Shown piece by piece: positions 35,601 to 44,600 of a stretch of DNA of 64,000 nt. This DNA is from Owenia fusiformis. Taxonomy: Eukaryota > Annelida > Polychaeta > Sabellida > Oweniidae. Both the position numbers and the translations under genes were made by a program. The stretch's first letter is position 1. Every line of letters starts with the position of its first letter. The stretch spans positions 3,925,525 through 3,989,524 of the forward strand of contig CAIIXF020000004.1 in assembly GCA_903813345.2 (NCBI GenBank). The letters run 5' to 3'. Under the pieces are notes generated by a model. That model was not told where the DNA came from and searched no databases. It saw nothing but the letters and a program-made list of their open reading frames with translations.

Positions 35601-38600
35601 ATATTTATACATATTAAATATAGTACTATATTTTATTGACTTAATAAAGGCAAACCTCAAAAAGGCCAGTGTTTTTGGTCTGATTTCTGTATCAGGAGTG
35701 GAAATATGAAATAGCAAGGAAAACAATGATGGAATGAACACTCAAATTGTATTGAAATGCAAGAAGACATTTCAATCCTCGAGACATGACATGTGAAATC
35801 ATTACAGAGTGACCTCTATTGAGCATAATTTTATAATTTCTAATATTTCAGGCCATTGCTAACGTTAACACTCAGGTAATACAATTTACCTCCCGTCAAA
35901 AGATGTCATGACGGTCATGTTTTGAAATGCAAAATAAAGTGAAATGGAATGGAATTAGTGAGAAATTAAATGAATAGGGATGTAGTCAACACTCTAAAGT
36001 GTAGAAAAATGCAAGAAAATCAGACACATTATTCAAATTTTAGAGAGAATATAGTTCTTTAAAACATGACTACATGATGTTCTCATTTTGGTTTTGGTTA
36101 ACAATCCTATTAGAGTATCTCACATAATCTGTGTTTTGTCTGTTGAATCTGTGTTTTGTCTGTTGAATCTGTGTTTTGTCTGTTGGATTGATCTTTGTAC
36201 TCTGTTTTCATTGAGTACCATTTCCACATACTTGTCCATGTTATGCATTTTGGTTGCTATAGTTGTGATAATTATGCACCAAGTTCTATGTCTTTAATCT
36301 GTTTCATGTTTTATATGTTATTGTGGTTTTCAGCAAGATTGTATTTATATGGTAGGCAATATTCTAAACCTAATATTGTGCCATGCCCTCCCCAACCCCT
36401 CCCTCACCCATGGTTTACTTATTAAGATTGTATATGGTTTATGGGTCTCTAGGTGTTGGGGTTTGTGAGCTATGGAGAATTGACATTTGAGTGCATAACC
36501 TAGGTAGTAATACAAATAACACCAATTTAGATTAATTAGGGTTTAAGGGATGGAACCATCATTCAAAAAGGTACATAGTTAGTATATTATTAACATTCAA
36601 AATGTCTGCCTCTTTTGGGATGGACGTAACTTGAGGAATCTTGTCAACAAAATAAATTTTAACAATATTCTTTGTTTTTCACTTCTATATAAGTGCTGTA
36701 CATGTATTTATTGTTTTAAGCAATCAACATTTAAAATTACATGATACACAAATATAATACAAACATTTTATTCACTATTATATCTGTGCAAATATCTTAA
36801 AATACTTTTTACCCAAAAGTATTCAATCTGGGTATTTGTTCCAGTCTGATTTTAAATATTCTGCTGTATAGTACAAAAATTTTATTCACTTTTATATATT
36901 TACAATAGTATTCTATCACTTTGAAGTGATCATATGATCAGTGCTGGATTAAAAGGGAGATGTTTGATAAATGTGAAGAACACAGTGACATCTATGTATG
37001 GGTGAATTGTTATATTGTTTCAATTCTCTAATCACAATTAGTACAACTACTTATCATACTTTATGGTTAATGAGGCCTTTACACTGCCATCTCTGCGGTG
37101 CCATTCTAATCTGAATGGACTGTCTTCCTTCCAACTGTCACACATCTTGATTACCTTCATTAAATCTCTCAACTGTCTACTATCACTGTCATTCTTACTC
37201 AGTTGTGTGTCCCACCATTCAGGTGTGTGAGGCTCCTTGGTGAGTCTGAGTAGTTTGTGTATCCATTCATCATCTTCAGTGTGAATAACTTGCAGCATGA
37301 ACCATGCAATTGCTGCACGACTGTGATGTTTGTGGGGAGCTAGCATTCTCTTAGGAAAGAATACATCATATGTGTAGTTTGGTGAGTAATTGTATATGTG
37401 TAGATTGATAATATCATTATTAGTCTTATTCAGGATCCTTCTGACAATATCCTCAAAGCATTCTCCCACATTTACTGCCTTACAGGTCTGCTGATGTGTT
37501 AACAACACCATGTTTACAGTATAGCTGGAGAGTATGTCAGGATGTGTCCAAAGTGACATTTCTGAAACGAGATGACAAATGTACTTAAGAGTTAGGAAGA
37601 GTTCCTTGTGAGATTCAGACAAAATATATTTTGTGTTAACAGGAGGATTTATGACAGACTTCATCCAGTGTTGTGAGTTGGAATAGCCACACTTGCACTT
37701 GCGTTCACTAATATTACCATTTACCATTAGACAGGGCCCCAGTTGCTTAGTTGGGTTCCCCTCTATAGAGAAACAGAGGTCTATATCAGTAGTACACAGG
37801 GGCCCACCAACCCTCAGCCAGAAGCTGGGACCATGCATCCTCTCATGGATACTTATCTCTCCTCTCTCGTATTGAGCATCAGTGTTCAACTCATGGTCTA
37901 ATTCTCCTATATATGTCAATGTATCCATATGCTGCAGGGATTGTATAATTAGTTTTCTCAGTTCATCTTCAAGTTTCTCACTACATAGATATTTCCCTTT
38001 CTCATTATTTCTAGTGTATTTTTCCATATTATGCATTGATAGAGCTCCAGGTTTCACTTTGATGTAACCAAATCCCTCTTCTCTGAGATTTCTATAACGA
38101 AAATCACTACATATACTTTGCACATCCTCCATGTCCACTGTGTTTGTGTTAAAGTTTGCCAGTATTGGCATGTAATCATATTCATCTGGCCAAAGTATCT
38201 TAGTTCCACTATATGAGCTACCACGTCTGAGAAGCCCTTTGGAACTTAACATTGAGTCATATTCACCAACCTTTCCTACTAGAGTTTGCATATTGTCTTC
38301 AATAAATGATGTATGTTCATTGAGTTTAGCTGGTGTGTATCTATTCCTTACATCAGCTGCCTTAGATGTTAAATGTACAAATTCTCCTAAGCGTTTTATT
38401 TCAGCTGTGACATCAGAGTGATGATAAGATGCAAAAGCACCCATGTTTTACCTAGTTTGTTTTTGTCTAGATTATAGTTCTGGCAACACATGATTTAACA
38501 TCTCATTATTATATGCCATCTTCACGCCCGGTGATCGTAGAATTGGGACGGAGGGGGGGAGCAGGCAATTTCTGCTAGAAATTTCAACAAATCTGGAAGA

Positions 38601-41600: not shown

Positions 41601-44600
41601 CAAGATCTGATTAGGTTTTGGGTATGCTGGCTGAATTACATGGTGGCCATTTTGAATTTTTCAATTTGGCGGCCATTTTGAATTTTTCAACTTGCTCCAA
41701 ATTGACCAAATTTTTTTTTTAAAAACATCTACAAGTTCTCAGAAGTTCAAATCTGACCTTAGATTTCAGATTTGACCTTTCATTCACCTTCAGTGACCTT
41801 GAAAAGGTCAAAAAGTTGATTTTCTAAATTGATATTTTGGATTTAAATTTAGGTCAGCTTAATTACAAAACACCTACTGAGGTCTGAAAAAGTTAAATTT
41901 TCAAGGTCGAAGGTCAAGGTCATTAAACTAGGTTACAAATGATGTTATCCAAGTTTCTCAAAGTTTGAGACTACAAATCAATTCTTGTCATCAAAATTCC
42001 AAGAAAACCGCTAACCTGTTCAACTTGAAATTTTTACACATGCAATAGCAGACTAGTGCCAAGATCTGATTAGGTTTAGGGCATGCTGGGTAAACTACGT
42101 GGTGGCCATTTTGAATTTTTCAACAAATCTTGTCATCAAATTTCCAGGAAAACCACTTATCCGTTCAACTTGAAATTTTTACAGATGCAAGAGCAGACTA
42201 TTGCCAAGATCTGATTAGGTTTTGGGTATGCTGGCTGAATTACATGGTGGCCATTTTGAATTTTTCAATTTGGCGGCCATTTTGAATTTTTCAACTTGCT
42301 CCAAATTTACCAAATTTTTTTTTAAAAACATCTACAAGTTCTCAGAAGTTCAAATCTGACCTTAGATTTCAGATTTGACCTTTCATTCACCTTCAGTGAC
42401 CTTGAAAAGGTCAAAAAAGTTGATTTTCTAAATTGAAATTTTGGATTTAAATTTAGGTCAGCTTAATTACAAAACACCTACTGAGGTCTGAAAAAATTAA
42501 ATTTTCAAGGTCGAAGGTCATCAAATTAGGTCACAAACGATGTTATCTAAATTTTCCCAAAGTTCCAGACTACAAATCAATTCTTGTCATCAAAATTGCA
42601 GGAAAACCGCTAACCTTGTCAACTTGAAATGTTTACAGATGCAAGAGCAGACTAGTGCCAAGGTCTGATTAGGTTTTGGCCATGCTGGATAAATTGCATG
42701 GTGGCCAGTTTGCTCTTCAAAGTGCGATATTTATCACTGTGTGTCTTGTTTGTTTTAAGCAATCAACATTTAAAATTACATGATATACAAATATAATACA
42801 AACATTTTATTCACTATTAAATATATGTACATGTACAAATATCTTAAAATATATTTTACCAGAAGTATGCAATCAGGTTATTTGTTCCTGTCCAACTTTA
42901 AATATTCTGCTGTATAGTACAAAAATTTTATTCACTATTATATATTTACAAAAGTATTCTGTCACTTTGAAGTGATCATACGATCAGTGCTGGATTAATA
43001 GTAAGATGTTAGATAAATGTGAAGAACACAGTGACATCTATGTTTAGGTGAATTGTTATATTGTTTCAATTCTCTGATCACAATAAGTACAACTGCTTAT
43101 TTATACTCCAGGGTTAATGAGGCCTTTACACTGCCATCTCTGTGGTACCATTCTAATCTGAGTTGATCATACCCAGAAGACTCATAATGCCAACTGTCAC
43201 ACGTTTTGATTACCTTCATTAAATCTCTCAACTGTCTACTATCCCTGTCATTCTTACTAAGTTGTTTGTCCCACCATTTAGGTGTGTGGGGCTCCTGAGT
43301 CAATCTAAGTAGTTTGTGTATCCATCCATCATCTTCAGTGTGGCTCACTTGGAACATGAACCATGCAATTGCTGCACGACTGTGAGATTTGTGGAGATAT
43401 AGCACTCTCTCAGGAAAGAATACATCATGTGTGTATTTTGGTGAGTATATGTGTAGATTGTTAATATCTTTATCATTCCGGATCCTTCTGACAATATCCA
43501 TAAAGCATTCTCCCACATTTACTGCCTTACAGGTCTGCTGATGTGTTAACAACACCATCTTTACAGTATAGCTGGAGAGTGTTTCAGGATCTGTCTCATG
43601 TGACATTTCTGAAGCAAGATGAGTGATGTACTTAAGAGTTAGGAATAGTTCCATGTGAGATTCAGACAAAACATATTTTGTGTTAACAGGGGGGTTTATG
43701 ACAGATTTCATCCAGTGTTGTGAGTAGGAATAGCCACACTCACACTTGTCTTTATCAGTTTCACCATTTACCATTAGACAGGGCCCCAGTTGCTCAGTTG
43801 GGTTCCCCTCTATAGAGAAACAGAGGTCTATATCAGTAGTACACAGGGGCCCACCAACCCTCAGCCAGAAGCTGGTACCATGCATGCCCCTGTGGATACT
43901 TATCTCTCCTCTCTTGTATTGAGCATTAGTGTTCTCGTGATCTCTTACTCCTATAAATGTCAATGTATCCATGTGTTGTAGGGACTTTATAATTAGTTTT
44001 CTCAGTTCAGAAAAAAGTTTTACACTACATAAATACTTCTTAAATCGATTATATCTAGTGTTTTTCATATTGTGTCGAATTGATAGAGCTCCAGGTTTCA
44101 CTTTAATGTAACCATATCCCTTGTCTCTATACCAATCATAACATGTATCTGCCACATCCTCCACCTCCACTGTGTTAGTGTTAAAGTTTGCCAGGATTGG
44201 CATGTAATCGTATTCATCTGGCCTCATAACTTTAGTTCCACTATATGAGCTACCACGTCTGAGAAGCTCCTTGGAACTTAACATTGAGTCATATTCACCA
44301 ACCTTTCCTACTAGAGTTTGCATATTGTTTTCAATGAATGATGTATGTTTACTGAGTTTAGCTGGTGTATATCTATTCCTTACATCAGCTGCCTTAGATG
44401 TTAAATGTACAAAGTCTCCTAAGCGTTTTACTTCATCTGTGACATCAGAGTTAACCTCTGTAACTAATTCTGTTTTAATGACTGAAGGATATGGTCCAGT
44501 TAGTTCGGGCAACACATGTTCCGGCAACACACGTTCTGGCAACACAGGTTTCCTGTTATGATTAGATGCAAAGAAATTACCCATGTTTACCTAGCTTGTT

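What the first reader, a model, noticed from the sequence alone, without database searches (positions are those of the whole stretch)
37047..44584. Two intact cGAS-like receptor genes nested antisense inside a MAP4K-type kinase intron
Both intronless frames carry the full cGAS-type catalytic set (GS, E-Y-D, later D) and sit head-to-tail, opposite to the kinase gene. cGLRs are innate immune nucleic-acid sensors that make cyclic dinucleotides, and many invertebrates have expanded them. The nesting, the lack of introns and the whole-codon indels between copies suggest retro-derived or single-exon genes kept by selection. Whether the host kinase and these sensors are co-regulated is speculation.
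Basis: partly seen in the sequence, partly recalled or inferred. Interest (0 to 1): 0.85.

Follow-up and report, generated by a model that had tools for sequence, protein, structure and literature searches.

The report
Twin cGAS-like genes inside kinase intron
Two intact, single-frame relatives of the immune enzyme cGAS sit as a tandem pair, on the opposite strand, inside an intron of a MAP4K4/TNIK-type kinase gene of an invertebrate; they belong to a large family of such genes in this genome, a kind of expansion already known from corals and bivalves.

Summary
Two intact minus-strand frames, A (37047-38444, 465 aa) and B (43097-44584, 495 aa), lie between plus-strand exons of a TNIK/MINK1/MAP4K4-type kinase gene whose CNH part lies beyond the window. 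Both carry GS, E-x-D and the third D. A profile of A, B and 31 other copies finds cGAS and cGLR structures, not MAB21L1, and the catalytic residues are invariant in it. A genome search gives 81 merged loci, most with a long open frame, and 14 STING-domain matches. A and B are most likely cGAS-like receptor (cGLR) enzymes of a lineage-specific radiation.

Corrections: (1) The pair arose by DNA tandem duplication that carried over 1 kb of 3' flank; retro-origin is not supported. (2) dN/dS is about 0.7 for A-B and 0.35-0.57 to two other copies: constrained, but modestly. (3) Nucleic-acid sensing is unproven; pI is 6.6 (A) and 8.2 (B), below the >8.5 reported for nucleic-acid-sensing cGLRs. (4) A young foldback transposon ends 77 bp before A's ATG, so A's expression is doubtful. 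(5) The published cGLR motif is not met to the letter. The nesting is probably incidental. AlphaFold with two sequences failed.

The parts
37047..38444 (-). Gene A: intact single-frame cGAS/Mab-21-superfamily nucleotidyltransferase, 465 aa
43097..44584 (-). Gene B: intact tandem sister copy, 495 aa, longer N-terminus
35888..38419 (.). Duplicated DNA unit holding most of A (3' flank 35888-36709 plus 36703-38419)
   Evidence: 89% and 87% identical to 40665-41464 and 42742-44451
40665..44451 (.). Duplicated DNA unit holding most of B, interrupted by a tandem-repeat insert at about 41.5-42.7 kb
38522..39357 (.). Foldback (long inverted repeat) transposon ending 77 bp upstream of A's ATG; many copies, some 99% identical on other chromosomes
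39526..39670 (-). Relic N-terminal fragment of a third copy, with a stop codon
   Evidence: tblastn and blastn
39867..39944 (-). Block shared with the upstream region of locus L003 (and in part L002), holding the palindromic NF-kB-like site GGGGATTCCCC
26497..26660 (+). Host gene exon: TNIK/MINK1/MAP4K4-type kinase catalytic loop (ends approximate)
46848..47063 (+). Frame holding a probable host exon of the acidic linker, downstream of A and B (assignment by recalled resemblance only; same strand and order as the CNH frames at 71-73 kb)

Best explanation
A and B are active-type cGAS-like receptor genes: single-frame nucleotidyltransferases that, when a ligand binds, would join two nucleotides into a cyclic dinucleotide that switches on STING proteins of the same cell. 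They are two of a radiation of some 60 or more long copies found on all 12 large contigs. The pair arose by DNA duplication inside a MAP4K4/TNIK intron, where the first copy probably landed by chance, and would be read from the opposite strand with their own start and 3' end. Shown here: homology, catalytic residues, copy number, tandem DNA duplication of the pair, constraint on the frames, and STING-domain sequence in the genome. Inferred: transcription, enzyme activity, ligand, product and immune role.
For: Profile of 33 rows against PDB: 43 hits at E up to 10, namely cGAS chains (best 1.7e-8), two chains named 'uncharacterized protein' (4jlx, 4kb6; recalled as pig cGAS), cGAS-like receptor 1 (5.3e-6 and 2.3e-4), the 'Mab-21 domain-containing protein' 7lt2 (8.7e-5), and two unrelated GCN4 fusions (0.019, 0.099); no MAB21L1 or MID51, although both are in that PDB copy. 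Profile-profile alignment to six Mab-21-like proteins of the same genome spans both lobes, probability 97.7, E 2.2e-12. G111, S112, K118, E124, D126, D253, W291, K318, S338, H348 and G358 are among the invariant columns of 33 rows. 104 matches to B merge to 81 loci; 68 have a frame of 400 aa or more, 61 of those without a stop inside the match (A itself is not among the 61, because its match runs past its ATG into two stops). STING_LBD: 14 matches, each over the cut-off, on C5, C7, C9, C10, C12 and C346; two hold a stop. In 9 of 9 close pairs the catalytic stretch has dN of 0.03-0.08. Tandem DNA unit. A and B are sisters, 100/99 support.
Against: No transcript or activity data. AlphaFold model unusable: pLDDT 33 with two sequences. 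The published motif is not met to the letter: A and B have R where it has Q/T before GS (of 33 rows 28 have R, 2 Q, 2 N, 1 C) and 117-164 residues where it has 50-90 (motif from PMC9980059). A's upstream region is broken by a young transposon. Coding DNA of A and B (1182 of 1346, 87.8%) is less alike than the 343 aligned bases of 3' flank (91.5%). B is under Pfam's cut-off, and B alone finds no relative in PDB. The second lobe matches cGAS only weakly (segment E 0.28). The tree holds no outside cGAS row and carries long-branch warnings; two rows that I had labelled Mab-21-like (L049, L050) fall with the family, with weak support.
Confidence: 0.72

Rival explanations
1. Same enzymes, but the ligand is not nucleic acid: an acidic-to-neutral branch of cGLRs that senses another (perhaps positively charged) microbial or self molecule. 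This is a variant of the best explanation, so its odds overlap with it.
For: pI 6.6 (A), 8.2 (B); of 33 rows, 2 are clearly above 8.5 and one rounds to 8.5. Li et al. report pI above 8.5 for nucleic-acid sensors and propose other ligands for acidic cGLRs (PMC9980059, passage). No cysteine cluster where the vertebrate zinc thumb would lie (sequence; position of the thumb recalled).
Against: Whole-protein pI from Biopython, not the calculator used in the paper; pI says little on local surface; B is near the limit and its close relative L003 is at 8.8.
Confidence: 0.4
2. Mab-21-type scaffold proteins that act in immunity or development without making a nucleotide, as reported for shrimp Mab21 proteins that act through IKK-epsilon.
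For: PMC12928593 (abstract and passages). Pfam names the domain Mab-21.
Against: Catalytic residues invariant in 33 rows and low dN there in 9 of 9 pairs; the profile matches cGAS and cGLR and not MAB21L1. The shrimp authors themselves leave other ligands and products open (passage).
Confidence: 0.15
3. Decaying duplicates: intronic copies without working promoters, kept open by chance.
For: A has a transposon 77 bp before the ATG and a relic beside it; dN/dS of A-B is high (0.72), 0.99 in residues 136-195; coding DNA is less alike than the 3' flank; sister loci such as L002 and L007 carry stops.
Against: Two frames of about 1.4 kb stay open at dS about 0.18; 5 of 6 gaps in the aligned coding stretch are whole codons; 1.7% of 300 bootstrap replicates reach 1; dN 0.06 against dS 0.39 in the 25 catalytic codons.
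Confidence: 0.15
4. Retro-derived genes.
For: Single frames; copies on many chromosomes.
Against: The A/B unit carries more than 1 kb of 3' flank; L002 and L003, on different contigs, share an upstream block. Target-site duplications and poly(A) tracts were not searched, so an older retro-origin of the first copy is not excluded.
Confidence: 0.06

Closest known systems
Animal cGAS-like receptors (cGLRs) of Li, Kranzusch et al. 2023 (preprint version PMC9980059)
   Same: G-S activation loop, E-x-D and third D, homology in the C-terminal lobe, stand-alone enzyme, large radiation together with several STING-domain loci, as in Stylophora (>40 cGLRs, 7 STINGs); some bivalves have >200 cGLRs
   Different: R before GS, 117-164 residues instead of 50-90 between the second and third carboxylate, mostly neutral or acidic pI, mostly single-frame genes; probably an annelid (inferred)
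Vertebrate cGAS
   Same: Best PDB profile hits, in both lobes
   Different: No cysteine cluster at the place of the zinc thumb (recalled); the second-lobe match is weak
Mab-21-like / MID49/51 proteins
   Same: Same superfamily; same-genome rows L043-L048 align over both lobes
   Different: L043-L048 form a separate clade with 100/100 support; MAB21L1 and MID51 not hit by the profile
Shrimp Mab21 proteins (PMC12928593)
   Same: Superfamily, invertebrate immunity
   Different: Reported not to sense nucleic acid or make cGAMP in the assays used; catalytic conservation here argues for an enzyme

Membership tests
cGLR (criteria of PMC9980059) | G[S/G] activation loop and [E/D]h[E/D] plus third [E/D], apart from spacing | tested here: met
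   A, B and 33 of 33 rows; 9 of 40 fetched loci were left out of these rows by length
cGLR (criteria of PMC9980059) | Literal motif h[QT]GS, and 50-90 residues before the third carboxylate | tested here: not met
   A and B have RRGS and spacing 129 and 124. The solved chain 7lt2 (recalled as a beetle cGLR) also lacks Q/T (GGS), so the letter rule looks loose; by this rule A and B are cGLR-like, not filed as members
cGLR (criteria of PMC9980059) | Homology over both the NTase core and the C-terminal helix bundle | tested here: met
   two segments on cGAS, the second at segment E 0.28; one alignment over both lobes
cGLR (criteria of PMC9980059) | Predicted structural homology to cGLR/CD-NTase | tested here: inconclusive
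   AlphaFold with two sequences gave pLDDT 33; the predictor's rule does not list copies from G000, so no deeper alignment was sent
cGLR (criteria of PMC9980059) | Nucleotide second messenger made on ligand binding | not testable with these tools
   needs purified protein
Nucleic-acid-sensing cGLR | pI above 8.5 / basic binding surface | tested here: not met
   A 6.6, B 8.2, with a different calculator from the paper's; local surface not tested
Mab-21 Pfam family PF03281 | Score over the curated cut-off | tested here: inconclusive
   A over, B under; 20 of 33 rows match at E up to 0.01
Retrogene | Copied unit limited to the mRNA | tested here: not met
   A/B unit includes more than 1 kb of 3' flank

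The most novel reading that the evidence does not exclude
A radiation of some 60 or more cGLR-like genes, paired with several STING-domain loci, most of whose members are neutral or acidic and so may sense something other than nucleic acid; specificity would be spread over the copies by tandem duplication and by fast change outside the catalytic site (in A-B most of all just after the E-x-D motif, B residues 136-195), while the catalytic site stays fixed: a germline repertoire of sensors sharing one output.
Probability: 0.3. Interest if true: 0.65.

Novelty: new member of a known kind. Interest (0 to 1): 0.4.

Why it matters
cGLR radiations are described for cnidarians and bivalves. A genome with some 60 or more long copies and several STING-domain loci, most copies with non-basic pI, would be a good place to ask what cGLRs sense beyond nucleic acid and how one signalling output serves many sensors. 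The nesting in a kinase intron itself is of little consequence.

Tried and rejected
PDB search with B alone: one chance hit, E 1.3. PDB search with L018 alone: 7lt2 at E 0.044 and one chance hit. AlphaFold on A and B: pLDDT 33, not used; no fold search was run on it. NCBIfam: 0 hits for A and B. PADLOC: 1 of 33 rows at E 0.0092 to an oligonucleotide cyclase, plus ZorA and DpdE for one row each, taken as chance.

Retroposition: rejected for the A/B pair. Gene conversion between A and B: divergence is uneven (32 differences in the worst 100 sites, 1 in the best; permutation p 0.0005 and 0.0015), but sites shared with L001 alternate between A (56) and B (75), so a converted tract was not shown; unequal constraint explains it as well.

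NF-kB-like sites: a palindromic form occurs in 4 of 42 upstream 500-bp stretches against 1.3% of random stretches (p 0.002; 0.015 if L002 and L003 count once). This form was chosen after the site in L003 and L002 had been seen. The wider consensus forms gave 5 of 42 against 5.2% and 7 of 42 against 7.0%, a weaker excess that was not tested. Neither A nor B has a site within 500 bp. The background came from this window and one neighbour, and the start of each row was the first ATG of its frame. A 19-base form of the L003 site has one other exact match in the genome, not followed up. Interferon-type site: 1 of 42 against 6% background.

Fast segment: residues 136-195 have the highest dN in A-B, L024-L037 and L030-L033 and tie in L022-L037, so 4 of 9 pairs; in the other 5 (L004-L005, L006-L010, L011-L013, L009-L016, L019-L027) the C-terminal or middle segment is faster. 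Two pairs share L037. In L004-L005 the catalytic stretch has dN 0.03 but dS 0, on 25 codons. YN00 failed for 2 of 7 pairs and gives 0.21 for B-L003, 0.24 for L001-L003.

Rows dropped: 9 of 40 fetched loci from the 33-row alignment by length (440-620 aa): L002, L007, L015, L017, L023, L026, L032, L034, L036. L042, the best Mab-21 match, was left out of the tree and of alignment A3 because its ATG frame (277 aa) lacks the N-lobe; L049 and L050 were left out of A3 but kept in the tree. The motif expression matched 37 of 40 loci; L020 was missed by it but has the residues in the alignment; L034 and L036 lack it in the frame used.

Copy number: 81 loci come from merging matches within 700 bp on one strand; the tool calls its counts lower bounds (86 of 158 candidates scored), while a few loci may be parts of one copy. 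Frames there are stop to stop.

Organism: 498.3 Mb with 12 contigs of 32-62 Mb fits Owenia fusiformis, 505.8 Mb and 12 chromosome-scale scaffolds (PMC9977687, passage). This is an inference from size and number only.

Papers: PMC9980059 (preprint version) seen as passages, outline and two sections, not its supplementary tables; PMC12928593 as passages; PMC9977687 as passages; all others as search listings only. 'Annelid' and 'Owenia' do not occur in the main text of PMC9980059. A search for annelid, cGAS, STING and expansion gave 6 papers, none on this judging by title and start of abstract.
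Full report
What is there. Two open frames lie on the minus strand: A, 37047-38444, 465 aa, and B, 43097-44584, 495 aa. No other start-to-stop frame in the window is longer than 170 aa. A and B are identical in 355 of 458 BLASTP columns, 78%. Pfam's Mab-21 model matches A above and B below its cut-off.

Host gene. The plus strand carries a kinase exon at 26.5 kb that matches TNIK, MINK1 and MAP4K4 far better than other kinases: E 3.1e-30 to 5.3e-28, against 7.8e-20 for MAP4K3, the next. 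A CNH-domain match lies on the same strand at window coordinate 72181-72393, outside the window. Frames at 71.3-73.3 kb read like the C-terminal part of such a kinase (resemblance to human TNIK recalled). A frame at 46848-47063 looks like part of its acidic linker (recalled). A and B thus lie between exons of one gene, antisense to it. No transcript was available, so exon borders are approximate.

Family. A protein search of the window's own genome with B gave 104 matches, which merge to 81 loci. Of these, 68 have a frame of 400 aa or more, and 61 of those have no stop inside the match; A is not among the 61 because its match runs past its ATG into two stops. The loci lie on all 12 large contigs and one small one, with groups of two or more within 200 kb on C1, C4, C6, C9, C10 and C12. 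An alignment of A, B and 31 of the 40 fetched loci has invariant G111, S112, K118, E124, D126 and D253 (B numbering), as well as W291, K318, S338, H348 and G358 among others. Against PDB its profile hits cGAS (1.7e-8), cGAS-like receptor 1 (5.3e-6) and the Mab-21 domain protein 7lt2 (8.7e-5); two GCN4 fusions at 0.019 and 0.099 are unrelated. Two segments align to cGAS, the first at segment E 6.1e-5, the second, in the C-terminal lobe, at only 0.28. MAB21L1 and MID51 are in that copy of PDB but are not hit. A profile-profile comparison with six Mab-21-like proteins of the same genome covers both lobes (probability 97.7, E 2.2e-12). In a tree of 41 rows these six form a separate clade with 100/100 support; A and B are sisters (100/99), next to L001, then L003, then L004 and L005. 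Two more rows that I had labelled Mab-21-like, L049 and L050, fall with the family. The tree carries long-branch warnings, is rooted at the midpoint, and has no outside row. STING_LBD gave 14 matches over cut-off on six contigs, two of them with a stop; some may be parts of one gene.

Origin of the pair. Blastn within the window shows 35888-36709 matching 40665-41464 (89%) and 36703-38419 matching 42742-44451 (87%). The copied unit therefore includes more than 1 kb beyond the stop codon; between the two pieces of the B unit sits a block of tandem repeats. This is DNA duplication, not retroposition. L002 (C5, with a stop) and L003 (C7) share an upstream block with each other, and L003 with window 39867-39944, which speaks for DNA-level spread too. 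Near that block, at 39526-39670, is a relic of the N-terminus with a stop: a third, broken copy.

Upstream of A. A foldback element of 836 bp (38522-39357) ends 77 bp before A's ATG. Its tested arm has matches of 99% identity on other chromosomes (68 matches; 40 of 2777 first-look candidates were scored), so it is young. A's promoter is thus in doubt. No such inverted repeat next to B's start is among the 25 of 30 pairs shown for 30-50 kb.

Selection. dN/dS of A-B is 0.69 (NG86) and 0.73 (YN00), and 0.72 with a bootstrap range of 0.51-0.99 on another alignment. For A-L001, B-L001 and A-L003 it is 0.53, 0.57 and 0.35. Coding DNA of A and B (87.8%) is less alike than the near 3' flank (91.5%), so the constraint is modest. 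It is uneven: in the 25 catalytic codons dN is 0.06 and dS 0.39; in residues 136-195 both are 0.33. In 9 of 9 close pairs the catalytic stretch has dN of 0.03-0.08; residues 136-195 have the highest dN, or tie, in 4 of 9. By the profile alignment this segment falls at about residues 236-275 of human cGAS, which from recall includes part of a secondary DNA-binding surface.

Function. The simplest mechanism is that of cGLRs: ligand binding orders the activation loop, two nucleotides are joined, and the product activates STING. The literature motif is not met to the letter (R for Q/T, longer spacing), yet 7lt2 also lacks Q/T. The pI of A (6.6) and B (8.2) is below the >8.5 reported for nucleic-acid sensors; of 33 rows two are clearly above it and one rounds to it. 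The ligand is therefore open. Palindromic NF-kB-like sites occur upstream of 4 of 42 genes against 1.3% expected, a form chosen after seeing two of them; wider forms show a weaker excess, and A and B have none within 500 bp.

Verdict. The nesting is most likely incidental: one pair among some 81 loci. Radiations of this kind are known in corals and bivalves (PMC9980059, section 5). What may be new is a further large radiation, probably in an annelid, with mostly non-basic members.

Noticed in passing
window 38522-39357: Many-copy foldback transposon, 836 bp and palindromic over nearly its whole length (85%), with 99% identical copies on other chromosomes; its transcript would form a long hairpin just upstream of a cGAS-like gene.
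   Followed up: partly
window 39867-39944; L003 2778-2889; L002 2767-2841: Upstream block kept between genes on different contigs, with a palindromic NF-kB-like site (complete in L003 and the window, one base shorter in L002).
   Followed up: partly
L019, L027, L012, and gene A N-termini: Starts of the MGxxxS type (MGCSLS, MGNTNS, MGAFAS) suggest that some copies may be N-myristoylated and membrane-bound (motif recalled, not tested).
   Followed up: no
L043 603-1925: A protein closest in PDB to the mitochondrial dynamics protein MID51 (E 4.5e-38); its spread in invertebrates was not checked.
   Followed up: no
G000 C7:10.96-10.98 Mb and C5:30.33 Mb: Clusters of STING ligand-binding-domain matches.
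   Followed up: no
window 41538-42712: Two head-to-tail units of about 0.57 kb (93.6% alike) with smaller repeats inside, in B's 3' flank; a 53-bp part also matches L001 at 77%.
   Followed up: no
L014 1207-3048: A family member with a hydrophobic, possibly membrane-spanning stretch near its C-terminus (seen, not tested).
   Followed up: no
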